Assembly (NCBI RefSeq): GCF_001748285.1
Contig: NZ_BDGT01000001.1
Location: 124,001-188,000 of the forward strand
From: Thermogemmatispora onikobensis
GTDB taxonomy: Bacteria > Chloroflexota > Ktedonobacteria > Ktedonobacterales > Ktedonobacteraceae
Direction of reading: 5' to 3'
DNA: 64,000 nucleotides
Shown here: positions 19,590 to 30,219 of the stretch, one piece after another
Layout: the number at the start of each line of letters is the position of its first letter
How positions within the stretch are numbered: the stretch's first letter is position 1
The notes under the pieces: model-generated
Told to the model about the DNA's origin: nothing
The model's input: the letters and a program-made list of their open reading frames with translations, nothing else
Databases searched by the model: none
Translations under genes and position numbers: made by a program

Positions 19590-20906
19590 ATGTTCTTACT
19601 CTTTCCACTGCCGGCGCTCACCCGGACACTTCTGACAGCGCTGATCGCCTTGCTGACGCTGGTCGGTATCATGACACGGCCCTTTCGCTGGAACGAGGCG
19701 CTGATTGCGCTCTCCGGTGCGGTCCTTCTGTTGCTGCTTGGGCTGATCAGTCCCGTGACGGCACTGCAGACGCTGCTGGGCGATTGGAACGTCTTCCTCT
19801 TTTTTCTGGGCATGATGGCCTTATCCGCCTTCGCCGATCAGGCTGGCCTCTTCGACTGGCTGGCGATCGTCGCGGCGCGTCTGGCCCGACGGAGCGCGCG
19901 CCTGTTGCTGCTCAACGTCTTTCTGCTCGGCAGTCTCATTTCGATGGTCCTGTCGAACGACGCAACAGCGCTCATTCTGACCCCGGTGGTCTACACGCTG
20001 GTCACGCGCCTGCGACTGCCGGTGATCCCTTTTCTCTTTGCCTGTACCTTCATCGCTGATACGGCCTCCTTCCTCCTGCCGGTGAGCAACCCCATCAATA
20101 TTCTGGTCCTTTCCCGCTTTCAGCTTGACCTCTGGACCTTTGTGCGACTACTCTGGTTGCCGGCGCTGGCAGCGATTGCCATCAACATCGGAGTCTTTTT
20201 CTGGCTCTATCGTCGGGAGGTGCGAGGGAGTTTTGACCCGAAGCGTCTCCCATCGGCCCAGGAGGCGGTGAAGGAGCCGGGCTACTTTCGCTACTGCTGC
20301 CTGGTGCTGGGAGCAGTAGCGGTGGCCTATGTGGTGGCCTCGGCCAGCGGCTTCCCGCTCTCCTGTGTTGCCCTGGCGGGGGCAGCGCTCTTGCTGGTGG
20401 GGGCGTTGCGCTGGCGGCAATTCAGACCACGCGCGCTGGCTGGTCACATCTCCTGGTCGCTCTTCGGCTTTATTGCAGGCATGTTCGTCATTGTCCAGGC
20501 CGTTGAAGGGACAGGTCTGACGCGCCTGTTTGGCGAACTGCTGCTGCGTCTGTCGGGAGGCAGTGCTCTGGGGGCCGTGCTGGTAGGAACGCTGGGGGCA
20601 GCGCTGGGGACGAATCTGATCAATAATGTGCCGATGGCGGTGGTGCTGAGTGCCTCGCTGCAGGCGCTCCACGGGCAGCTCTCGCCGGCGAGGCAGCTGG
20701 CTTTTGTGGCGGCGACCATCTTCGGCTGTGATCTGGGGCCGAATCTGACGACGGTCGGTTCGCTGGCGACCGTGCTCTGGCTCCTGATCCTGCGCCAGCG
20801 CCAGCTGGACGTCTCGGGTCTGGACTACTTTAAGGTGGGCATCCTGGTAACGCCCCTGATGCTGCTGGTCGGGGCCCTGCTGATCTGGCTGCTCCTGCCA
20901 ACGTGA
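19590..20906 (+). CDS. ArsB/SLC13-type arsenite or anion efflux permease
   Basis: A 438-residue integral membrane protein with about 11-12 hydrophobic segments, the size of ArsB. Motifs match the ArsB/NhaD group of the ion-transporter superfamily: VLSNDATALILTPVV, ADTASFLLPVSNPINIL and LGTNLINNVPMAVVLSA, plus FGCDLGPNLTTVGSLATVLW near the end. It is expected to export arsenite or a related anion using the proton gradient. No arsR, arsC or arsA is adjacent, which weakens the arsenic claim. The gene begins within a few bases of a non-coding GC-rich stretch; the start has only a weak ribosome binding site (TGGCAGG). Confidence 0.75.
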   Translation: MFLLFPLPALTRTLLTALIALLTLVGIMTRPFRWNEALIALSGAVLLLLLGLISPVTALQTLLGDWNVFLFFLGMMALSAFADQAGLFDWLAIVAARLARRSARLLLLNVFLLGSLISMVLSNDATALILTPVVYTLVTRLRLPVIPFLFACTFIADTASFLLPVSNPINILVLSRFQLDLWTFVRLLWLPALAAIAINIGVFFWLYRREVRGSFDPKRLPSAQEAVKEPGYFRYCCLVLGAVAVAYVVASASGFPLSCVALAGAALLLVGALRWRQFRPRALAGHISWSLFGFIAGMFVIVQAVEGTGLTRLFGELLLRLSGGSALGAVLVGTLGAALGTNLINNVPMAVVLSASLQALHGQLSPARQLAFVAATIFGCDLGPNLTTVGSLATVLWLLILRQRQLDVSGLDYFKVGILVTPLMLLVGALLIWLLLPT

Positions 20907-20990: not shown

Positions 20991-21048
20991 GGAGCGCTGG
21001 TAGTGGCGACCTGGACTGCTGGAGTGCAAGAAACGGAGGTGTTGTGCT

Positions 21049-21552
21049 GTGTCTGCTGTGCGTGTGCTCTGTTGCCTTGACGGGGTGAATGCCGAAGTGT
21101 TGGGCCAGGCGCTGACCCGGCTGTGGCCGCTTGCTGGCGACCAGCTGCAGCTGGGCCTCCTCTATGTTAGAGACACGCGCCCGCTAGGAGAGCTGGAACG
21201 CAGGCGAGAGCGCTTCCTGCGCCCTCCTCATCTGCCACCGATGCGTCAGGAGCAGCTGCGGCAGGCTGAGCGAGAGGCGGCACAAGAAATTCTGCAGGAA
21301 GGAGCGCGCTATATGCGGGGGGCGGAGCTGCTGCAACGCGAAGGCAGGGCTGAGCAGGAGATTGTGCGCTGCGCCCAGGAGTGGGGGGCCAGCTTGATCA
21401 TCCTCTGTGCCCGTTCGCCGCGGAGCGGGGGGGGACCTGAGCAAGGGCCGGCTTCGGTAGGCCGGGTGGCGCGCTTTGTCCTGGACCATGCAGGCTGTCC
21501 CGTCTTACTGTTGCGCGGACGGCTCCCCGCCGAGGCCACGGGGGCATCCTGA
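21049..21552 (+). CDS. UspA-like universal stress protein
   Basis: A 167-residue single-domain protein. VRVLCCLDGVNAEVLGQAL opens the fold (beta1-alpha1). GASLIILCARSP is the beta4 region, and SVGRVARFVLDHAGCPVLLLRG matches the UspA C-terminal GS-V-x-x-V-L-x-H-A-x-CPV block. The G-2x-G-9x-G ATP loop is only partly kept because a GGGPEQGPA insertion replaces the first glycines, so ATP binding is uncertain. The start is GTG 21049 with GGAGG about 13 bases upstream. It lies 142 bases behind the ArsB-like permease and may be co-transcribed in part. Confidence 0.7.
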   Translation: MSAVRVLCCLDGVNAEVLGQALTRLWPLAGDQLQLGLLYVRDTRPLGELERRRERFLRPPHLPPMRQEQLRQAEREAAQEILQEGARYMRGAELLQREGRAEQEIVRCAQEWGASLIILCARSPRSGGGPEQGPASVGRVARFVLDHAGCPVLLLRGRLPAEATGAS

Positions 21553-22076
21553 ACGCGCTTCACAGCTGCACTGCTCCCCCGCGCCAGCTAGCATCTCTCT
21601 GGTCAGCCCCCCCTGCTTCGTCTTGAGCGGGCGGCTGCACGGGCTGCTTTCTGGGCTGCCCGCAACGGTGAGGCAGTGGCTGAGGCTGAAACAGCCTGTG
21701 CCCGCCGGGCGTGAAAGACTCTGGCGGCCTCTTCCCTCCAGCCGAGTCAGGTCAGCAGCAGTCAGCCAGCCAGGGGCCAGGGTCTCCCTCCCCCGAGGGT
21801 ACCAGGAGGTTAGGAGGCTAGAGTCGCTGCTGGGAGGGAGCCGGGCTGGCTTGCGCAGTGACCTCTGCCGGAGGAAGTGGCTCTAGAAGGATTGTCTGCG
21901 CGTGATATAATCGTAAAGCGTTCGGAAATTTCGGTCACTACCGAAATAGGGCGCACCATTCCGGGCGAGAAGAGCCAGCACAGATGGCGCCACTCCAGCA
22001 TTGGCCCCCCGGGGAGTGGCAGGCGATCCGCGCAGCCCGAGGCTCTTGCGCCATGCAGTGATTGTGAGATGAGCCT
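21553..22076 (+). other. 524-base gene-free region before the response regulator
   Basis: Bases 21553-21890 are GC-rich with no supported gene and only a short CCCTC/GAGGG stem near 21790. The informative part is 21903-21947 (extended -10 plus operator-like palindrome), annotated separately. From there to the ATG at 22077 is an untranslated leader of ~160 bases. Confidence 0.4.
21903..21947 (+). promoter_or_regulatory. Extended -10 promoter with downstream ATTTCGGT palindrome
   Basis: TGATATAAT (21903-21911), the same extended -10 as moaA, is followed 16 bases later by ATTTCGGT-CACT-ACCGAAAT (21928-21947), a perfect 8-base inverted repeat across the expected initial transcribed region. It may be an operator or a 5' hairpin. 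Confidence 0.55.
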
Positions 22077-22493
22077 ATGTCACACAAGCGTGAGGAGCAG
22101 CAGCCGGAGGAGAGAGCCGGGGCAAAAACGATACTCATTGTGGAAGATGACGACGGCATCGGCGCCTTCCTGGTCCAGGCAATTTCCCAAGAGACTCCGC
22201 ACCGCGTGCTGCTGGTCCACGATGCCTTCCAGGCGCTCAAGGCGGTGCGCTCGATCAGGCCCGGACTGCTGATTCTCGACTATCAGTTGCCGGGGATGAA
22301 CGGCCTTGAATTGTTCGACCAGTTACAGGCAATGGAGGATCTGGCCGCGATCCCGACCATTCTGGTCAGCGCGCGTTTGCCGGAGCAGGAGATTCGCCAG
22401 CGCCAGATCGTGGGGCTGAGCAAGCCCTTAGAGCTGGATGAACTGCTGGAGACGATCGAGCGGCTGCTTGGGGGTGACCCTGCCTCGCGCTAA
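22077..22493 (+). CDS. Single-domain response regulator (receiver only)
   Basis: 138 residues, CheY/Spo0F-like. TILIVEDDDGIG holds the acidic pocket (Asp24-26). Asp68 in LLILDYQLPGMNG is the phospho-acceptor, TILVSAR has the conserved switch Ser (about 98), and Lys116 in GLSKPLELDEL completes the active site. No output domain is present, so it signals by protein contact or passes phosphate on. The first 16 residues (SHKREEQQPEERAGA) are a charged extension. No histidine kinase lies nearby. Confidence 0.9.
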   Translation: MSHKREEQQPEERAGAKTILIVEDDDGIGAFLVQAISQETPHRVLLVHDAFQALKAVRSIRPGLLILDYQLPGMNGLELFDQLQAMEDLAAIPTILVSARLPEQEIRQRQIVGLSKPLELDELLETIERLLGGDPASR

Positions 22494-22516
22494 GAGGGCC
22501 GTGCCAGTTCCCTTCC

Positions 22517-23557
22517 TCAGTCCTGGTCTGGCCTGGCCCTGCTGCCCTCGGTCATGGCAAGGCGCAGGTGAACGAGGCCGCTGCTGCAGCGAAGCAAGCG
22601 CTCGGTTGCTGACAGTGGAGTAGACGGAGGGGCGAAAGGGCGCCCTTCCTGGGGGTCCCACCACTGCAGCGCATCGCTCACCAGCAGCATTTCCTGCTGG
22701 TCCGAGACCAGGAGGGGGCCAGCCCAGGAAGCGACACCTCGAATAAAGTTGTAGACGTGGCGAGCCTTCCAGCGCCAGGCCGGCACGTGCAGATCCTCCG
22801 GTGAGGGGGCAGGTCGATAGCTGCCGTGCTGCTCATCCTGGGGTTCAGGTGCTGCCGTTCCCTGGGCGAGGGCCTGGACAGCGCGCACCAGAAGCTGGGC
22901 TCCGTGTTCGGCACAGCGACGTTCTAACTCCGCATAGCTGATCCCATCGGGCACACTGATCCGTTCCTGAGCCACAATCGGCCCGGCGTCCAGGCGTTCC
23001 TCGACCAAGTGCACGCTGACTCCTGTTTCACGCAGTCCCTCGCGAAAGACCCAGAACAACGGTTCTGGTCCGCGCAGGGCTGGCAGCAAAGACGGATGGA
23101 GGTTGACAGCGCCCAGGCGGGGCAGGGTCAGCAGAGAGGTGGGCAGGCGGCGTGGGAAACAGGCTATGCAGAGCAGATCGGGCTGGTACGAGGCCAGGGT
23201 GGCCCGCGTCTCCTCGGCCTGTAGACGAGCAACCTCCCAAACGGGGAGGCCGGCCCCGAGGGCCAGGGTCACTGGTGATGTTGTCAGGGAGCTGTTGACA
23301 ATGGGCAGCAAAGGGCGGGCGCCGCGTTGCCGGGCAGGGGCCAGCAGAGGACGCAAAGGGGGACGGGGTGGGACCTGCTGGAGCTGGCTCGGGAGCGTGG
23401 GAGGAAGCGGTGGAGCGGGCACTACCAGTGCACAGACAGGAATGCCGGCCTGGAGGAGGGCCTGCAGTGGCAGAGCCGAAAAGATCCCCTCCATGCCGAA
23501 GAAGAGCACGCGCGGTCTCCCTGGGAAGGGAGCAGAAGGATCAAGCGTATTTGACAT
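22517..23557 (-). CDS. Formyltransferase-domain protein (methionyl-tRNA formyltransferase-like, divergent)
   Basis: About 346 residues. RVLFFGMEGIFSALPLQALL opens the formyltransferase Rossmann fold. LGAVNLHPSLLPALRGPEPLFW carries the Asn and His of the catalytic triad, and VSVHLVEERLDAGPIVAQE the Asp. ARHVYNFIRGVASWAGPLL resembles the FMT C-terminal OB domain. A long proline-rich insert (PAPPLPPTLP.. to ..PPRPPLRPLL) interrupts the folate-site side. No def gene is adjacent, and the divergence argues against housekeeping fmt, so the formyl acceptor may be a sugar nucleotide or small molecule. The start is uncertain: ATG 23557 is used, upstream ATG 23569 is possible. It is divergent from the YggX/radical SAM operon, with the promoter overlapping its start. 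Confidence 0.65.
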   Translation of the reverse strand: MSNTLDPSAPFPGRPRVLFFGMEGIFSALPLQALLQAGIPVCALVVPAPPLPPTLPSQLQQVPPRPPLRPLLAPARQRGARPLLPIVNSSLTTSPVTLALGAGLPVWEVARLQAEETRATLASYQPDLLCIACFPRRLPTSLLTLPRLGAVNLHPSLLPALRGPEPLFWVFREGLRETGVSVHLVEERLDAGPIVAQERISVPDGISYAELERRCAEHGAQLLVRAVQALAQGTAAPEPQDEQHGSYRPAPSPEDLHVPAWRWKARHVYNFIRGVASWAGPLLVSDQQEMLLVSDALQWWDPQEGRPFAPPSTPLSATERLLRCSSGLVHLRLAMTEGSRARPDQD

Positions 23558-23579
23558 TGTTCTCAGCATTGGATACCAT
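23551..23579 (+). promoter_or_regulatory. Promoter of the YggX / radical SAM operon
   Basis: A consensus TTGACA (23551-23556), a 17-base spacer and TACCAT (23574-23579) stand 43 bases before ATG 23622. The -35 lies across the first codons of the divergent formyltransferase gene, so the two transcripts must compete or be jointly controlled. Confidence 0.5.
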
Positions 23580-23621
23580 GTAGCCAAACAGCATTTTCAG
23601 GGAAAGCGTGGGGTATCTACC

Positions 23622-23948
23622 ATGCCACGAATGGTCAACTGTGTCAAGCTGGGTCGTCAGCTCCCCGGGCTGGAGAAGCCGCCGATGCCGGGCGAGCTGG
23701 GCCAGCGGATCTACGAACAGGTCTCCGAGCAAGCCTGGCGCCTGTGGGAGACCCAGCGCACGCTGCTGATCAATCACTACGGTCTCAACCTGGCTGATCC
23801 CGAGGCACGCAAGTTCCTGCGCGAGCAGATGGAGGAATTCTTCTTTGGCGGCCAGGAAGAGCAGAAGCCAGAGGGCTGGGTGCCCGAGGACGCCGGGGTT
23901 GGCGTAGGGCCAGGGCGAAAAGGCGGCGGGCCAGCGCGCAAGAAATGA
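23622..23948 (+). CDS. YggX-family Fe(2+)-trafficking / oxidative damage protection protein
   Basis: 108 residues. MPRMVNCVKLGRQLPGLEKPPMPGELGQRIYEQVSEQAW aligns along its length with bacterial YggX: the conserved Cys7 in NCVKLG, PPxPGELG, LLINHYGLNLADPEARKFL and the final MEEFFFGG. YggX proteins protect iron-sulfur enzymes and are thought to handle labile iron in the cytosol. Relative to YggX it has a Gly/Lys-rich tail (PGRKGGGPARKK). The stop overlaps the radical SAM start as ATGA (23945-23948), so the two are translationally coupled, implying that this protein serves the cluster of its partner enzyme. Confidence 0.88.
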   Translation: MPRMVNCVKLGRQLPGLEKPPMPGELGQRIYEQVSEQAWRLWETQRTLLINHYGLNLADPEARKFLREQMEEFFFGGQEEQKPEGWVPEDAGVGVGPGRKGGGPARKK

Positions 23949-25447
23949 AAGCTCCTGGTGCCATTCTCTTGCTCTCCTGCTATGAGCTGGGCCATCAGCC
24001 CCTGGCTCTAGCCTCCCTGCAGGCCCGTTTGCGCGAGGCCGGCTATCAGCCCCGGGTGATCGATAGTGCGGTCGAGCCGCTCAGCGAAGAAGAGATCCGG
24101 GCAGCTCGTCTGGTGGCTATCTCTGTGCCCATGCACACAGCCCTGCGTCTGGGGGAAGTGCTGGCGCGACGCATTCGGGCCGCTCATCCCCAGGCTTATC
24201 TCTGCTTCTACGGCCTCTATGCGCTCCTGAACGCGGACTACCTCTTGCGCGAGGTAGCCGACGCGGTGCTGGGAGGCGAATATGAGGAGCCGCTGCTGGC
24301 GCTGGTAAGGGCCTTGGAGCGGGGGGAGGAACAGCCAGAGGTGCCAGGGGTAGGCACACGTCAGCAGCCCGCGGGAGCCTGGCTTCGGCGTCCGGCTTTC
24401 GTCGTGCCGCAAAGACAGGGTCTGCCGGAGCTGCAGCGCTATGCCCGGCTGGAGTGGAACGGCCAGTATCGGCTGGCAGGCTATACCGAGACGACGCGCG
24501 GCTGTAAGCATACCTGCCTGCATTGCCCCATCACCCCAGTCTACCGTGGGCGTTTCTTTGCCGTCCCCCAGGAGGTGGTCATCGCCGATATTCGCGCCCA
24601 GGTGGAGCAGGGGGCAGAGCACATCACCTTTGGTGATCCAGATTTCTTCAATGGCCCGACCCATGCGCTGCGCATCGCGCGGGCGCTGCACCGCGAGTTC
24701 CCGACGGTGACCTTCGACGCCACGATCAAGATCGAGCACTTACTCAAGCATCGTCACCTGCTGCCGGAGCTGCGCGATCTTGGCTGTCTCTTCGTTGTTT
24801 CTGCCGTAGAGTCGCTCAACGATGAGGTACTGCGCCATCTGCGCAAGGGGCACAGTGCTGCGGATGCGGTAGCGGCCTTTGAACTGATGGAAGAAGTAGG
24901 GCTGACCCTACGTCCGTCGTTGCTGCCCTTCTCGCCCTGGGAGACCCTGGAGAGCTATGTAGCGCTGCTCGATTTCTTTGAGGAGCGCCATCTGGTGGAG
25001 CAGGTGGACCCGGTGCATTTCTCCATCCGGCTGCTCATCCCTCCCGGCTCTGCCCTCTTGGAGAGCGAGGGCCGGCCCGGCTGGCTTGGTGAGCTGGATG
25101 AGGCCGCCTATAGCTACCGCTGGCGCCATCCCGACCCACGCATGGATCGCCTGCACGAGCGAGTGGCGGCTCTCGCCGAGGAGGCGGCTCAGCTGGGGAG
25201 CAATCCCGTCGAGACCTTTTTCCGGATCAAAGCGGAGGCCCTGGCCGCCTGCGGGCGTCCCTTCGACCGCGAGGCGGCCCTGCAGCGCTATGGGGTAGCC
25301 AGGAGACCGCCGCGCCTGACCGAAAGCTGGTTTTGCTGCGCAGAGCCGACCCAGGGCCAGTTCGGCTTCAACTCTTGTTGTGGTCCCGCGCGCCAGGAAC
25401 AGAGCGCCGCGGCGGCATCGAGCGGTTGCTGCAGCGTAGGAACCTGA
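23945..25447 (+). CDS. B12-binding-type radical SAM protein with CCAEP cysteine-rich tail
   Basis: 500 residues. Residues 1-125 have the cobalamin-binding-like Rossmann fold (LSCYELGHQPLALASLQARL, VAISVPMHTALRLG, LGGEYEEPLL) but lack the DxHxxG base-off histidine. The radical SAM core follows with Cys187, Cys191 and Cys194 in GCKHTCLHCPI, then GDPDFFNG. The tail has three Cys-Cys pairs: WFCCAEP (464/465), NSCCGP (478/479) and SGCCS (495/496). I recall a family named CUAEP/CCAEP-tail radical SAM (seleno)proteins, in which the first Cys pair is Cys-Sec in some species; here both codons are TGC. The reaction is unknown. It is translationally coupled to YggX; an ATP-grasp gene converges 119 bases downstream. 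Confidence 0.85.
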   Translation: MKAPGAILLLSCYELGHQPLALASLQARLREAGYQPRVIDSAVEPLSEEEIRAARLVAISVPMHTALRLGEVLARRIRAAHPQAYLCFYGLYALLNADYLLREVADAVLGGEYEEPLLALVRALERGEEQPEVPGVGTRQQPAGAWLRRPAFVVPQRQGLPELQRYARLEWNGQYRLAGYTETTRGCKHTCLHCPITPVYRGRFFAVPQEVVIADIRAQVEQGAEHITFGDPDFFNGPTHALRIARALHREFPTVTFDATIKIEHLLKHRHLLPELRDLGCLFVVSAVESLNDEVLRHLRKGHSAADAVAAFELMEEVGLTLRPSLLPFSPWETLESYVALLDFFEERHLVEQVDPVHFSIRLLIPPGSALLESEGRPGWLGELDEAAYSYRWRHPDPRMDRLHERVAALAEEAAQLGSNPVETFFRIKAEALAACGRPFDREAALQRYGVARRPPRLTESWFCCAEPTQGQFGFNSCCGPARQEQSAAAASSGCCSVGT

Positions 25448-25566
25448 GCGTAGCAGATCTGCCAGACGAAGCGCGCCGTGCCCGCTCGGCCTATCCGGTC
25501 GTCTTGGCCGGGCCGAGCGGGGTGCGTGCAGAGGTTGCCAGGCTGCAGGTGGTGTCAGGGATGGGG

Positions 25567-26895
25567 TCAGGTGAAGACAGTAGTAGTGAGTACGGGGAGC
25601 TCGCGACGAATATCGAAGCGCAGGCAGCGATGGGCCGCGCGCAGGGCCTGCTCTACGGCAGCGGGAGACTCTCCCCGGGCGAAGATGAACCCCAGGTAGC
25701 TGGCGCCCTCTGGCAGCGGGACCAGCGGGTTGTTCAGGGGCGCAGTGATCTCCACCCCCGTGATGAGCGGGACCTGTTTGGCCTCCTCGATGCCCTGTAC
25801 GCCCTTGAGGATGCCGGCCCGAGGGATAGGGATCATCATGACGCCGGCGGCCTCCGGGCGGCGCTCCAGCGAGGGCAGTTTTCTGCCCAGGGCGTGCCGT
25901 AGGATCAGCTCCTCCAGACACATGCCTGCGCCGAACTCCAGGATCGTCGAACACAGTCCCCCAATTGATCGCCCAGCGATCTCCAGCATCCACGGCCCCT
26001 GGTCATTGACGCGCAGCTCGGCATGGGCCGGACCTTCGCGCAAGCCGATCGAGGCCGCGGCCCGTTCGACACAGGCGCGGATGGCCTCCTGGACAGCGGG
26101 GGGCAGGCGCGAGGGGGTGACATAGATGGTCTCTTCGAAGAATGGCCCATCGAGCGGATCGGGCTTGTCGAAGAGCGCCAACACCTGCAGGTGTCCAGCT
26201 GTCAGCAGCCCCTCCAGGGCCACCTCGAAGCCCGGAATAAAGTCCTCAACCAGGAAACCAGTAGTTGCTTCATCGAAGCCCTCAGCGAGCACAATGCGCT
26301 TGAGGCGATAGAAGGCCCTCACGAACTCCTCGGGCGTATTGGCCCGAATGACGCCACGGCTGCCCGAGAGACGCAGGGGTTTGAGCACGCATGGATAGCT
26401 GACCGTGCGCGCCACAGCCGCGGGATCGGCGGTCAGTGGAAAGTGGCGGAAGACTGGGCAGGGAACGCCCCCAGCGGCCATGCGCTGGCGCATCAGATAC
26501 TTATCACGCGCCGCCTCGGCAGCGGCGGGCGAGTTGCAGGGCAAGCCCAGGGCCTCACTAGCCAGAGAGGCCAGCTCAACGGCGCTATCGTCTACCGAGA
26601 GCACAGCCTGCAGCGGGTGCTCCTGGGCGAAGGAGACGATGCGCTGTACGGCCTCCTCCGGCGCTTTGAAGTCGAGGGGCAGAACCCTTGGCGACGGGCT
26701 GGTCGTCAGGCCCGGCGGTGTATCCAGTCCGACGACTACCTCCAGCTCCAGCCGGCGAGCGGCGCTCATGAAGGCTCCTCCCCGATAGGTCGCGGGGGTC
26801 ATCAAGAGGAGGACGCATTGAGGCACAGCAGTCGGTGGTTGCGAGGGCAGCGATGGGTGTCGATGCAATGGCTGATTGTTCATGGCAGACGTCAT
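25567..26895 (-). CDS. ATP-grasp ligase (biotin-carboxylase-like / L-amino-acid-ligase-like)
   Basis: 442 residues. A pre-ATP-grasp Rossmann domain (VLLLMTPATYRGGAFMSAARRLELEVVVG) precedes the ATP-grasp core: DKYLMRQRMAAGGVPCP, YPCVLKPLRLSGSRGVIRA (ATP-binding Lys), FLVEDFIPGFEVALEGLL, AHAELRVND and PWMLEIAGRSIGG (metal-binding Glu/Asn region). Such enzymes join a carboxylate to an amine or thiol through an acyl phosphate, in the cytoplasm. A lipoyl- or biotin-type partner domain is missing. It is convergent with the CCAEP radical SAM gene and divergent from the HAD gene; function in one pathway is an inference. Of two possible starts (ATG 26895, ATG 26883) the first is listed; both lack a strong ribosome binding site. 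Confidence 0.82.
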   Translation of the reverse strand: MTSAMNNQPLHRHPSLPSQPPTAVPQCVLLLMTPATYRGGAFMSAARRLELEVVVGLDTPPGLTTSPSPRVLPLDFKAPEEAVQRIVSFAQEHPLQAVLSVDDSAVELASLASEALGLPCNSPAAAEAARDKYLMRQRMAAGGVPCPVFRHFPLTADPAAVARTVSYPCVLKPLRLSGSRGVIRANTPEEFVRAFYRLKRIVLAEGFDEATTGFLVEDFIPGFEVALEGLLTAGHLQVLALFDKPDPLDGPFFEETIYVTPSRLPPAVQEAIRACVERAAASIGLREGPAHAELRVNDQGPWMLEIAGRSIGGLCSTILEFGAGMCLEELILRHALGRKLPSLERRPEAAGVMMIPIPRAGILKGVQGIEEAKQVPLITGVEITAPLNNPLVPLPEGASYLGFIFARGESPAAVEQALRAAHRCLRFDIRRELPVLTTTVFT

Positions 26896-26976
26896 CTCTT
26901 TATCACAGACAGAGCAGGCAGCTCATGTTCACAGCAGAGGCAGCTGGTCCGCTCTCGACCGCCTCGAACGTGTTGC

Positions 26977-27089
26977 CAGCAGACCTGACTGAGCGGTCTG
27001 CTGCTCGCTGGCCCAGTGGGGCCTGGCGAGGCAGGGCGCCGTTGCCCGGCGCAGGGCACTCGAATCCGCGGTGCTCCTCTGGCATTATA
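26977..27089 (-). promoter_or_regulatory. Promoter -10 and leader hairpin of the ATP-grasp gene
   Basis: Minus strand TATAAT (27089-27084) predicts a start near 27077 and a ~180-base untranslated leader. Within it CAGCAGACC (26977-26985) and GGTCTGCTG (26995-27003) form a perfect 9-base hairpin with a 9-base loop. A leader this long and structured suggests post-initiation control. The whole 26896-27322 interval is otherwise gene-free. Confidence 0.5.
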
Positions 27090-27322
27090 GCGCAACCGGG
27101 CCAGCCAGCGACAGGGGGCACCTGGCCCTGGTCAGAGAGAGAGGGAGCAGGCAGCGAGGGCCGTCTCGTTGGAACCAGCAGGCCAGTTCGGGCGTACTAC
27201 TCCTATCGGCGAGCATCCGAGGGGGCAGCCAGGCAGATGGGAGCTCAGCTCGTGCGCCGCTGGTAGGACGAGGGCCAGGTCTCATGCGAGGCCAGCAAGC
27301 CAGGTAAGGAGGAAAGGAAAGC

Positions 27323-28012
27323 ATGTCCACGCTCGTCTTCTGGATCGACGTTGACAATACCCTGCTCAACAATGACCATGTCAAAGCCGAGCTCGAGCGC
27401 GAGCTGCGGGCAGTCCTCGGAGCAGCCTTGACGGAACGTTTCTGGAGCCTCTACGAAGCGGTGCGCCATGAGCGAGGCGTCGTCGATATTCCCCAGGCGC
27501 TGCGCCGGCTGCGGGCCGAGAGGTCGCAGCGGGAGTTACCGGAAGCGAGGTTTCAGCAAGCCTGTGACCTCTTCGAGCAGTACCCATTTGCGACAGCCCT
27601 TTATCCGGGGGCCCGGGAGGCGCTCGCGCACCTGAGCCAGCTTGGTCTCACCGTCATTGTCTCCGATGGTGACCATCTCTTCCAGGCAGAAAAGATCGTC
27701 AACAGCCATCTAGCCGAAGCTGTAGGGGGGCGTGTCCTCATCTATGATCACAAGGAGCGGCATCTTGAAGAGACCATGAGGCGTTACCCAGGCGAGCAGT
27801 ATGTTGCCATCGACGATCGGCTTGACCTGCTGGCCGCCTGCAAGGTCCAGTTAGGGGAACGGCTGACCACGGTCTTTGTGCGTCAGGGAAGGCATGCGGA
27901 AGAGGGATTACGGCAGCCGGGACATTACCAGGCAGATAGGAGCGTCGAGGCCATTGGCCAGCTCTGTCATTACAGGGCCACGGATTTCCTGCCGGAGGGC
28001 CGGCCCCGCTAA
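27323..28012 (+). CDS. HAD-superfamily hydrolase (phosphatase-like)
   Basis: 229 residues. Motif I is FWIDVDNTLL, with the Asp nucleophile and acid/base at residues 9 and 11. An alpha-helical cap follows. Motif II is VIVSDGD, a lysine of motif III lies around DHKERH, and motif IV is YVAIDDRLDL. The fold predicts Mg-dependent phosphoester hydrolysis of a small molecule in the cytoplasm. Ribosome binding site AAGGAGGAAAGGAAAGC is strong. It sits between the divergent ATP-grasp gene and the JAMM gene; whether it belongs with the former is unknown. Confidence 0.82.
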   Translation: MSTLVFWIDVDNTLLNNDHVKAELERELRAVLGAALTERFWSLYEAVRHERGVVDIPQALRRLRAERSQRELPEARFQQACDLFEQYPFATALYPGAREALAHLSQLGLTVIVSDGDHLFQAEKIVNSHLAEAVGGRVLIYDHKERHLEETMRRYPGEQYVAIDDRLDLLAACKVQLGERLTTVFVRQGRHAEEGLRQPGHYQADRSVEAIGQLCHYRATDFLPEGRPR

Positions 28013-28122
28013 CGAGGGCGAGGGCCGGACTCACGAACAGAGGCTTGTCAGGGCAGGGGCGGTACTTTATCATCTGCAAGCGGAAGGGACAAGACAGTCA
28101 GCAGTCATAGAGGAGGAAAGAC

Positions 28123-28704
28123 ATGTCGCAGGAAGCGTGGAAGGCGAGGCCCGAGGCAGCCGGGAGAGGGAGGAGCACAGTGGTACTTCCCCGTGGAGTG
28201 CAGCGCGCGCTGCTAGACGACGTCTGGAGCCGGAGGAAGATAGAGGCCTGTGGGCTACTCCGAGGGGAAATTGATGCCCAGGGGAACTGGCATGTTGTCG
28301 CCGTGCACCCTCTCGCCAACATTGCCGAGTCGCCCGTCTCGTTCGAATTCGCGCCGGAGGATGTCCTGCAGGTGGAGCTCGCCTATCCGGGGCAGGTCAT
28401 TGGAGTCTACCACAGCCATCCGGGGGGGCTGCGTGGGGCCAGCCGTACCGATCGCGAGACCATGCAGCGTGTCAACGGGGAGCAGCAGATCCCCTGGGTC
28501 TGGCTGATTCTCTGTGGGCCATTCACTGCCAGCCTGCCGTTGGCGGAAGCGAGTGCAGGCGATCGGGCAGCAGAGGAAGCCTGTGCCCGTTGGCTCTCAG
28601 AGCGGTTGCTGGCCTATTACCACGATCCCAGCGAGGGGCTGCGGCAGGTGGTTGCGGTCCTGGAGCCAGGTGTGCAGCCTCAGCGGGCTGAGCGGAGGGT
28701 GTGA
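28123..28704 (+). CDS. JAMM/Mov34-type metallopeptidase-domain protein
   Basis: 193 residues. All JAMM zinc-site residues are visible: Glu41 in KIEACGLLRG, and His97, His99, Ser107 and Asp110 in HSHPGGLRGASRTD. FEFAPEDVLQVELAY is the usual helix before the active site. JAMM proteins of this prokaryotic class remove C-terminal extensions from ubiquitin-like or sulfur-carrier proteins; no ubiquitin-like partner is encoded nearby, so the substrate is open. Strong GAGGAGGAAAGAC ribosome binding site. It is downstream of the HAD gene by 110 bases and probably co-transcribed with it. Confidence 0.85.
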   Translation: MSQEAWKARPEAAGRGRSTVVLPRGVQRALLDDVWSRRKIEACGLLRGEIDAQGNWHVVAVHPLANIAESPVSFEFAPEDVLQVELAYPGQVIGVYHSHPGGLRGASRTDRETMQRVNGEQQIPWVWLILCGPFTASLPLAEASAGDRAAEEACARWLSERLLAYYHDPSEGLRQVVAVLEPGVQPQRAERRV

Positions 28705-28881
28705 GCGGAGTAGGGGGCACCGGGGGGGAGGAGAGAGGAGAGGGGCCATACGCTCACTCAAAAGGGGAAGTATCTGGCAAATTCCTGGCAGATCTGCTAC
28801 ACTCAGGGAGAAATCGCGAGAGGCTGGCTCACAAGCAAACAGGCAGCACTAACAGCGTTACCCAGGAGGATTACGGACTCA

Positions 28882-30219
28882 ATGTCTCAATACAGTGTCT
28901 GTCCGCAGTGCGGCAGCCAGGTGGGGCCAGATGAGGCATTTTGTGGGCAGTGTGGTGCGGCGCTCACATCCCCGGGGTCGCCGGCGCAGCCGACGCAGAT
29001 GACGGGAACGCCGCCCCCACCGGGGTCGAGGAGCGGACTCTTACAGGGCTACAGCCGGGGGGTCTCGCCGCCGCCCGGGCACTATCCGGCGGGGTCTGGG
29101 GGGGGGTCAGGCGCGGGCAGCGCGACGCCGGGTCCGCCCTCGCCCTGGGCGACCGAGCCGATGTCTAGCAGTGCGCTCGGTGGAGGGCCGCGGACGCCGG
29201 CGCCGAGCCAGCGAACAGAGTTCTATCAGGATGCGACGGAGGCGATGCCGGCGGCGGGGGCTGGATATGGGCAGCCTGGTCAGCCGCCCCAGGCGGAGTT
29301 TCCGGCGGCCCCTGGCTACCAGACGGGGTATCAAGGGCCGGCAGGAGGAGCCTATGGCACGGGGGTACAGCAACCCTACCCAGGGGCAGGCGCACCCTAT
29401 CCTCCGACCATGCCGCCGTACCAGCCGGGGCAGACAGGTTTTGCCGGCCCCGGCACCTACCCGGGGACGGTCATGCCGGGGCAGACCTATGGCGGGGGAT
29501 TTCCGCCACGTCCGCAGCCAGGCGGTGGTCCAGGCCCGAATCAGCGGAACACCTGGGTTGTCGTCACAGCTGTGGGGGCTGTGGTTGTGCTTTTCCTCAT
29601 CATTTTACTTGGTGCCTTTGTCTGGATGCGGGGGGGGTCCCAGACGGGAGCGGGGCCGACGGCAACGGTCGCAACGGAGGCGAGTCCGACGCCCAGTCCG
29701 ACGCCTAGCCCAACGCCGACGCCCAGTCCGACGCCCAGTCCGACCCCGACGCCCTCACCGGCAGTGTCACCGACGCCCCCGCCCAGCCCTGGCTTCGCCT
29801 GGTGTGATCAATGCCGCAACGAGGGCTTTACTACGCAGTATCCGCTCGGTTGGAGCCAAAGCTCCACACCTGACGGGACGGGAATTCGTTTCACCAGTCC
29901 CACCAGCAGCGAAATCACCGCCTCTTTTAAGGTGCCGGGGTCTACCAATCAGACGTCGGATCAATTGGTAGCCAGCGAGATTTCGCAGCTGTCAGGGGCA
30001 ACCAATGTCAGCCCGACGACCACCACAACGATCGGCGGGACGACCTGGCGTACAGCTTCCGCTGACTATCAGCAGCAGAGCCAGGATCACATCCAGGTCT
30101 ATGCCACTGTCTATCAAGGCAAGGCCTATCTGATCGAGATCCAGGCGCCGCACGATCAGTTTGATCAGATGAACACGCAGTATTTTGCGACTATGTTGGC
30201 AACATTCCAGTTTGTCTAA
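28882..30219 (+). CDS. Zinc-ribbon, proline-rich single-pass membrane protein with TPSP spacer and exported domain
   Basis: 445 residues. An N-terminal zinc ribbon (Cys7, Cys10, Cys21, Cys24) is followed by ~190 residues of Gly/Pro/Tyr/Gln-rich cytosolic sequence and one TM helix (about 224-249). A threonine-proline-serine repeat (about 265-305) leads to a ~150-residue outside domain with WCDQCRNEGFTTQYPLGW and an C-terminal beta pattern resembling PsbP-like/lipoprotein sensor domains. Double-zinc-ribbon proteins of this layout are common in Ktedonobacteria. The repeat is also visible in the DNA as CCGACGCCCAGT-type units at 29690-29770. The function is unknown; a cell-surface sensor or adhesin is possible. 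Confidence 0.8.
   Translation: MSQYSVCPQCGSQVGPDEAFCGQCGAALTSPGSPAQPTQMTGTPPPPGSRSGLLQGYSRGVSPPPGHYPAGSGGGSGAGSATPGPPSPWATEPMSSSALGGGPRTPAPSQRTEFYQDATEAMPAAGAGYGQPGQPPQAEFPAAPGYQTGYQGPAGGAYGTGVQQPYPGAGAPYPPTMPPYQPGQTGFAGPGTYPGTVMPGQTYGGGFPPRPQPGGGPGPNQRNTWVVVTAVGAVVVLFLIILLGAFVWMRGGSQTGAGPTATVATEASPTPSPTPSPTPTPSPTPSPTPTPSPAVSPTPPPSPGFAWCDQCRNEGFTTQYPLGWSQSSTPDGTGIRFTSPTSSEITASFKVPGSTNQTSDQLVASEISQLSGATNVSPTTTTTIGGTTWRTASADYQQQSQDHIQVYATVYQGKAYLIEIQAPHDQFDQMNTQYFATMLATFQFV

What the first reader, a model, noticed from the sequence alone, without database searches (positions are those of the whole stretch)
23622..25447. YggX iron protein translationally fused by ATGA overlap to a CCAEP-tail radical SAM enzyme
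Seen: the YggX stop and radical SAM start overlap as ATGA; the radical SAM protein has Cys187/191/194, a B12-domain-like N-terminus without DxHxxG, and a tail with three Cys-Cys pairs (WFCCAEP, NSCCGP, SGCCS). Established: YggX handles labile iron; radical SAM enzymes need [4Fe-4S] clusters. Recalled: a named CUAEP/CCAEP-tail radical SAM (seleno)protein family of unknown function. Inference: a dedicated iron chaperone coupled to an enzyme with extra thiol or cluster sites, an undescribed modification system.
Basis: partly seen in the sequence, partly recalled or inferred. Interest (0 to 1): 0.78.

Follow-up and report, generated by a model that had tools for sequence, protein, structure and literature searches.

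The report
Widespread ArsL-like radical SAM ligase module
A bacterial radical enzyme of unknown function, related to the enzyme that builds an arsenic-containing antibiotic, is inherited across several bacterial phyla together with an amino-acid ligase and an iron-handling partner, which marks an undescribed pathway that probably makes an unknown amino-acid-derived molecule.

Summary
YggX (23622-23948) and a 500-aa radical SAM protein (23945-25447) overlap by ATGA. They are two coupled genes, not a fused protein. The enzyme belongs to NCBIfam NF040546 (CUAEP/CCAEP-tail; 772 bits, cut-off 500), which has no published function in the library held here. Its closest characterised relative is ArsL of arsinothricin biosynthesis (31-36% identity).

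In 201 Chloroflexota genomes, 50 of 51 with the enzyme also encode the ATP-grasp ligase, against 18 of 150 without it. Where the ligase is not adjacent, it was found elsewhere in 20 of 22 genomes. YggX is one occupant of an iron slot: NfuA/A-type/SUF genes or DUF169 take its place in other phyla, and in Thermomicrobia Fmt-YggX-ligase stand together without the enzyme. Tail position 465 is selenocysteine in 73 of 110 loci.

Only the CCAEP pair is family-wide. The other two Cys-Cys pairs belong to a genus-specific, probably disordered extension.

Most likely mechanism, inferred: ArsL-like radical chemistry on an acceptor held by the tail makes an amino acid, which the ligase then couples. The acceptor and the product are unknown.

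The parts
22517..23587 (-). Formyltransferase-like gene (Fmt paralogue), divergent from yggX; likely start ATG at 23569 or 23557
   Evidence: PF00551 99 bits; TIGR00460 123 bits, below its cut-off of 201.5; the genome has a true Fmt elsewhere at 295 bits; NxHxSxLP and LDxG motifs present; same divergent place in 45 of 114 loci
23551..23579 (+). Promoter-like site (TTGACA, 17 nt, TACCAT) ahead of yggX
   Evidence: 1 found against 0.4 expected in shuffles, so weak
23622..23948 (+). yggX, bacterial Fe(2+)-trafficking protein, 108 aa, with Cys7; the only copy found in the genome
   Evidence: PF04362 125 bits, NF003817 134 bits; single copy; Cys7
23945..23948 (+). ATGA overlap of the yggX stop and the radical SAM start
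   Evidence: 4-nt overlap in at least 18 of 27 loci examined
23945..25447 (+). CUAEP/CCAEP-tail radical SAM protein, 500 aa, Cys form
   Evidence: NF040546.1 771.8 bits, cut-off 500; AlphaFold mean pLDDT 93.2, pTM 0.91
24503..24526 (+). CX3CX2C radical SAM cluster motif, Cys187/191/194
   Evidence: invariant in 64 of 64
24785..24787 (+). Cys281, conserved in the CUAEP family (61 of 64) and Val or Leu in ArsL
25334..25348 (+). CCAEP tail motif, C464-C465; Cys465 is selenocysteine (in-frame TGA) in most relatives
   Evidence: TGA in 73 of 110 loci, Cys codon in 37; modelled as ordered (block 461-470 pLDDT 84)
25370..25444 (+). Genus-specific Cys-rich C-terminal extension (NSCCGP, SGCCS), predicted disordered at 477-482 and 490-500
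   Evidence: present only in the six Thermogemmatispora sequences; low pLDDT
25567..26895 (-). ATP-grasp L-amino-acid-ligase-like gene, convergent with the radical SAM gene
   Evidence: PF13535 118 bits and LAL_C2 PF18603; closest solved protein L-amino acid ligase BL00235, 3vot, 143.6 bits; co-occurrence

Best explanation
The four genes (formyltransferase-like, yggX, radical SAM, ATP-grasp) form one biosynthetic module. The radical SAM protein is a paralogue of ArsL. Its [4Fe-4S] cluster cleaves SAM, and the radical formed (by analogy with ArsL, the 3-amino-3-carboxypropyl group) is joined to an acceptor atom held next to the cluster by the tail pair Cys464-Cys/Sec465, perhaps with Cys281. 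The product would be an amino acid. The ATP-grasp ligase then couples it to a second amino acid or similar partner; where present, the formyltransferase may cap an amine. YggX, or NfuA/A-type/SUF proteins in other phyla, supply or repair the enzyme's oxygen-sensitive cluster. Shown here: homology to ArsL, linkage and co-inheritance of the genes, swapping of the iron-slot proteins, and Sec/Cys exchange in the tail. Inferred: the chemistry, the tail's role, the order of steps and the roles of YggX and the formyltransferase. The acceptor atom and the product are unknown.
For: NF040542 ArsL is the second-best family (309.6 bits), and tblastn finds RCCLKC/ArsL proteins at 31-36% identity over residues 7-415. 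ArsL proteins end in FKRCCLKC, and their CC pair aligns with C464-C465. Many residues are shared, including D231, D233, P331-W332, R362 and W393. ArsL-type clusters in Priestia, Alicyclobacillus and Pantoea also carry an ATP-grasp gene (22-24% identical to P0003), so the pairing of ArsL-type enzyme and ligase occurs in both branches. Co-occurrence with the ligase: 50 of 51 against 18 of 150 genomes (p about 9e-31), and 26 of 26 against 12 of 106 genera; 20 of 22 further genomes lacking an adjacent ligase gene hold it elsewhere. The same Fmt-YggX-ligase order without the enzyme occurs in seven genomes and in G158. Iron slot within 3 kb: YggX 50, HesB/Nfu 27, DUF169 19 of 114 loci, with no YggX or HesB/Nfu hit beyond 3 kb. 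In L171 the gene lies in a SUF operon. ArsL is reported to make hydroxyarsinothricin, an amino acid, probably by ACP transfer (PMC8552651).
Against: ArsL's own ACP-transfer mechanism is described as a prediction in the paper (PMC8552651). At 31-36% identity radical SAM enzymes often differ in reaction. The Cys281 position and the linker before the tail differ from ArsL. No ArsR, ArsM or ArsN gene was recognised among the recurrent neighbour clusters (most of these were judged by eye from their first residues, not by a family search). The fold search gives AprD4 and cobalamin-type enzymes, which do ordinary 5'-deoxyadenosyl chemistry. The model's coordinates could not be read, so the distance from tail to cluster was not measured. 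The ligase also occurs with NfuA or YggX in genomes without the enzyme, so it has some use of its own. The partner type changes only three times on the tree, so the swaps are few.
Confidence: 0.4

Rival explanations
1. The module is real, but the enzyme does ordinary 5'-deoxyadenosyl radical chemistry on a small molecule. The tail Cys-Cys/Sec pair is a redox couple or thiol donor, and the iron proteins only supply the cluster.
For: Most radical SAM enzymes form 5'-deoxyadenosyl radicals; the best fold match is AprD4, a dehydratase (TM 0.63). Adjacent Cys-Sec pairs are typical redox pairs (own knowledge).
Against: The closest characterised homologue by sequence is ArsL, not AprD4; its tail is also a CC pair at the same aligned place.
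Confidence: 0.3
2. Sulfur or selenium insertion with a sacrificial cluster: the enzyme gives up atoms from an Fe-S cluster held by Cys281 and the tail, and NfuA or YggX rebuild it each turnover, as NfuA does for lipoyl synthase.
For: The NfuA/A-type/SUF partners recall the LipA-NfuA pair (papers found); CUAEP-specific Cys281 and C464-C465 could give three ligands.
Against: Cys281 is absent in 3 of 64 sequences; no additional Cys triad is invariant; ArsL has a single cluster motif (PMC8552651).
Confidence: 0.15
3. The whole family makes an organoarsenical, as ArsL does, with As(III) as the acceptor.
For: ArsL kinship; an ArsB-type permease gene (PRK15445 267 bits, below its cut-off of 457) lies upstream in this genus and some relatives; thiol/selenol pairs bind As(III) (own knowledge).
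Against: No arsR, arsM or arsN gene was recognised among recurrent neighbours, unlike the ArsL plasmids; the pattern of inheritance and the SUF link fit poorly with arsenic islands.
Confidence: 0.12
4. Chance or merely positional neighbours without a shared function.
For: Partner type is clustered on the tree (three changes), so shared descent inflates raw counts.
Against: Genus-level co-occurrence of 26 of 26 with the ligase, retention across phyla, and unlinked but co-occurring cases.
Confidence: 0.03

Closest known systems
NCBIfam NF040546.1 rSAM_CUAEP (CUAEP/CCAEP-tail radical SAM (seleno)protein)
   Same: Full-length match well over the cut-off; the CCAEP tail is present
   Different: This genus is a Cys form with an added Cys-rich extension after residue 475. 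The family name carries no function, and its partners are not named there or in any paper held
ArsL (NF040542.1, RCCLKC-tail), arsinothricin biosynthesis
   Same: 31-36% identity over residues 7-415, same CX3CX2C and many shared residues, C-terminal CC pair, and in several clusters an ATP-grasp gene alongside
   Different: Below ArsL's cut-off (309.6 against 450); tail CCAEP not CCLKC; longer linker before the tail; Cys281 instead of Val/Leu; Sec in most members; no arsM/arsN/arsR companions recognised; iron/Fe-S companions instead
L-amino acid ligases (BL00235, BacD) for the ATP-grasp partner
   Same: PF13535 plus LAL_C2; 3vot at 143.6 bits
   Different: Substrates unknown; far below the cut-offs of named ligase models such as BacD and DdaF
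LipA with NfuA (lipoyl synthase and its cluster repair protein)
   Same: Radical SAM enzyme genetically tied to an NfuA-type carrier
   Different: No sequence family match to LipA; single cluster motif; amino-acid ligase partner

Membership tests
NF040546 rSAM_CUAEP | Score over the curated cut-off (500 bits) along the full model | tested here: met
   771.8 bits, model positions 1-466 of 468
NF040546 rSAM_CUAEP | C[C/U]AEP tail motif | tested here: met
   WFCCAEP at residues 462-468
NF040546 rSAM_CUAEP | Selenocysteine at the second tail position in many members | tested here: met
   TGA in 73 of 110 loci; downstream folding stronger than in Cys forms, mean z -1.17 against -0.09; at least 9 to 12 changes on the tree. 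This protein itself is a Cys form; the genome keeps SelB
ArsL (NF040542) | Score over the curated cut-off (450 bits) | tested here: not met
   309.6 bits
ArsL (NF040542) | RCCLKC C-terminus | tested here: not met
   CCAEP instead
ArsL (NF040542) | Located with arsM, arsQ, arsN1 or arsR | tested here: not met
   None recognised among recurrent CUAEP neighbours; present in the ArsL plasmids
ArsL (NF040542) | Transfers the ACP group of SAM to arsenite | not testable with these tools
   Needs biochemistry
YggX (PF04362) | Full-domain match over the cut-off and Cys7 | tested here: met
   125 bits, cut-off 27; Cys7
B12-dependent radical SAM methyltransferases | B12-binding domain over the cut-off with DxHxxG | tested here: not met
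   23.8 bits against 32.1; no DxHxxG; many B12 radical SAM enzymes also lack DxHxxG (own knowledge), so this does not wholly exclude cobalamin
L-amino acid ligase (ATP-grasp partner) | ATP-grasp plus LAL_C2 domains | tested here: met
   PF13535 and PF18603 over their cut-offs

The most novel reading that the evidence does not exclude
A widespread, undescribed pathway in several bacterial phyla makes a new amino-acid-derived metabolite: a selenoprotein radical SAM enzyme joins the 3-amino-3-carboxypropyl group of SAM to a thiophilic atom held by its Cys-Sec tail, a dedicated ligase turns the product into a small peptide, and dedicated iron/Fe-S proteins keep the enzyme alive.
Probability: 0.3. 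Interest if true: 0.85.

Novelty: new variant of a known kind. Interest (0 to 1): 0.62.

Why it matters
The family is named but, in the literature held here, without function, although it occurs in about a quarter of the sampled Chloroflexota and in Nitrospirota, Rokubacteria, Poribacteria, Acidobacteria and others. Showing that it belongs to a co-inherited module, and that ArsL is its nearest characterised relative, gives a testable guess at its chemistry (5'-methylthioadenosine against 5'-deoxyadenosine as by-product). If the guess holds, it would extend the very small group of radical SAM enzymes that use the ACP half of SAM, explain a selenocysteine tail, and predict a common metabolite that, as far as the held literature shows, has not been looked for.

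Tried and rejected
Literature searches for CUAEP, CCAEP, RCCLKC and the model accessions found nothing; a 2026 selenoproteome review has no passage that names this family under the terms searched. No RNA family lies in 21000-28900. The idea that extra tail Cys residues compensate for loss of selenocysteine was tested: extra Cys occur in 11 of 37 Cys forms and 0 of 73 Sec forms, but only about three independent pairs bear on it (median p 0.25), so it is left open. Reading the AlphaFold coordinates was not possible, so the tail-to-cluster distance is unmeasured. A weak class of YggX matches (40-65 bits) in Chloroflexota was kept apart; it barely overlaps with the enzyme (one genome). Cluster 5 of the neighbour grouping mixes A-type carriers, NfuA and Nfu proteins and is reported as one iron-sulfur group. 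The shadow ORFs on the minus strand inside the radical SAM gene were disregarded.

Full report
What is there. The window lies in a Thermogemmatispora-like genome: the closest named loci are T. carboxidivorans, aurantia and tikiterensis, and the window is G000:C1:124001-188000. yggX (23622-23948) and the radical SAM gene (23945-25447) overlap by ATGA. Upstream and divergent is a formyltransferase-like gene (22517-23587, minus strand); downstream and convergent is an ATP-grasp gene (25567-26895, minus strand). YggX scores 125 bits against PF04362 and is the only copy found in the genome. The formyltransferase-like protein is not the housekeeping Fmt, which lies elsewhere at 295 bits.

The tail. 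In-frame TGA stands at tail position 465 in most relatives. Over 110 loci there are 73 TGA and 37 Cys codons, and the sequence after TGA folds more strongly than after Cys codons (mean z -1.17 against -0.09). On a tree built without the tail, Sec and Cys exchange at least 9 to 12 times. The window's genus is a Cys form although the genome keeps SelB. The family tail ends soon after CCAEP; the NSCCGP and SGCCS pairs belong to an extension found only in the six Thermogemmatispora sequences. In the AlphaFold model (mean pLDDT 93.2, pTM 0.91) the block with CCAEP is ordered (84) and the extension is not (under 50 at 477-482 and 490-500). So two of the three Cys pairs are unlikely to be part of the core mechanism.

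Closest known enzyme. ArsL is the second-best family (309.6 bits, below its cut-off of 450). A plasmid search finds RCCLKC/ArsL proteins at 31-36% identity over residues 7-415. Aligned with four of them, the protein shares the cluster motif and many other residues, and their terminal CCLKC places its CC pair at C464-C465; that placement follows a long gap and is a best alignment, not a structural match. Cys281 is in 61 of 64 CUAEP proteins but is Val or Leu in ArsL. ArsL is reported to make hydroxyarsinothricin, an amino acid, and is predicted to do so by moving the 3-amino-3-carboxypropyl group of SAM to arsenite (PMC8552651). The fold search puts AprD4 and cobalamin-type radical SAM enzymes nearest among solved structures; no ArsL structure appeared in the PDB sequence search.

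Is it a system? In 39 loci from relatives, YggX lies beside the enzyme gene in 38. In a wider set of 114 distinct loci, within 3 kb there is YggX in 50, HesB/NfuA-type in 27, DUF169 in 19, ATP-grasp in 47 and the formyltransferase-like gene in 45; no YggX or HesB/Nfu match lay between 3 kb and the ends of the stretches. YggX is confined to Chloroflexota in this set. All 12 Nitrospirota loci have DUF169, 6 of 7 Poribacteria loci have an NfuA-type gene, and 5 of 6 Rokubacteria loci have a HesB/Nfu-type gene plus the ligase. DUF169 has no established link to iron. In Ignavibacteriales locus L171 the gene stands in a SUF operon. The partner type changes three times on the tree, so these are a few old swaps, not many independent ones.

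Co-occurrence. In 201 Chloroflexota genomes, 51 have the enzyme, 68 the ligase and 34 the strong YggX form. The ligase is in 50 of 51 genomes with the enzyme and 18 of 150 without (Fisher p about 9e-31); by genus 26 of 26 and 12 of 106. YggX is in 32 of 51 and 2 of 150 (p about 1.5e-21). These p-values ignore shared descent; the genus-level count reduces but does not remove that problem. Of 22 genomes chosen because no ligase lay within reach of the enzyme gene, 20 have it elsewhere at 50-65% identity. In seven of those the ligase stands with YggX and the formyltransferase-like gene in the same order as here but without the enzyme between them, as in G158. In genomes without the enzyme the ligase still stands beside NfuA-type genes or YggX. 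The ligase is thus the near-obligate partner, and the iron/Fe-S link belongs to the ligase as much as to the enzyme.

Parallel in ArsL clusters. The ArsL-type clusters of Priestia, Alicyclobacillus and Pantoea also hold an ATP-grasp gene, distantly related to this one (22-24%). The cluster in Pseudomonas amygdali does not show one in the stretch read. The pairing of an ArsL-family enzyme with an amino-acid ligase therefore occurs in both branches. That fits an enzyme whose product is an amino acid: the nearest solved structure to the ligase is the L-amino acid ligase BL00235.

Most likely working, with its limits. I propose that the enzyme makes an amino acid by ArsL-like chemistry on an acceptor held by the Cys-Cys/Sec tail, that the ligase couples it, and that YggX or Fe-S carriers serve the enzyme's cluster. 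The linkage is shown; the chemistry, the acceptor and the product are not. Ordinary 5'-deoxyadenosyl chemistry is a serious rival. Sulfur insertion with a sacrificial cluster, as in LipA with NfuA (papers found), and an organoarsenical product are lesser rivals. No arsM, arsN or arsR gene was recognised among the recurrent neighbours (most judged by eye), which argues against arsenic as the general substrate, although an ArsB-type permease gene lies upstream in this genus.

Novelty. The protein family is already named, and no function was found in the library held. What appears new is the module, its near-obligate ligase, the swapping iron/Fe-S partners and the ArsL kinship. A paper on this in sources not held here cannot be excluded. 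I rate it a new variant of a known kind.

Noticed in passing
window 19590-20906 (+): ArsB/CitMHS-type permease gene (PRK15445 267 bits, below its cut-off of 457), followed by a universal stress protein gene, kept upstream of the module in this genus and several related genera; its substrate is unknown.
   Followed up: partly
L193, L196, L197: ArsL-type plasmid clusters of Priestia, Alicyclobacillus and Pantoea carry an ATP-grasp ligase gene and a GTP-binding protein gene (CobW-like in Priestia) besides arsenic genes, which suggests peptide forms of arsinothricin-like compounds.
   Followed up: partly
window 25370-25444 and relatives: Extra Cys residues after CCAEP occur in 11 of 37 Cys forms and in none of 73 Sec forms, in about four lineages; too few independent cases to test.
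   Followed up: partly
L171, L184, L168: In Ignavibacteriales, Bacteroidetes and Methylomirabilota MAG contigs the CUAEP gene lies near SUF-type Fe-S assembly genes.
   Followed up: partly
L089, L107, L138, L143, L147, L167 and others: A PLP aminotransferase gene lies within 5 kb of the CUAEP gene in 14 loci of Thermomicrobia and Poribacteria, which would fit an amino-acid pathway.
   Followed up: no
L201, L203, L205, L208, L209, L210, L207: In Chloroflexota without the CUAEP enzyme the same ATP-grasp ligase stands next to NfuA-type genes or YggX, so ligase and iron protein form a pair of their own.
   Followed up: partly
Nitrospirota loci such as L172 9498-10238: DUF169 (PF02596), a family of unknown function, is next to or near the CUAEP gene in all 12 Nitrospirota loci.
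   Followed up: no
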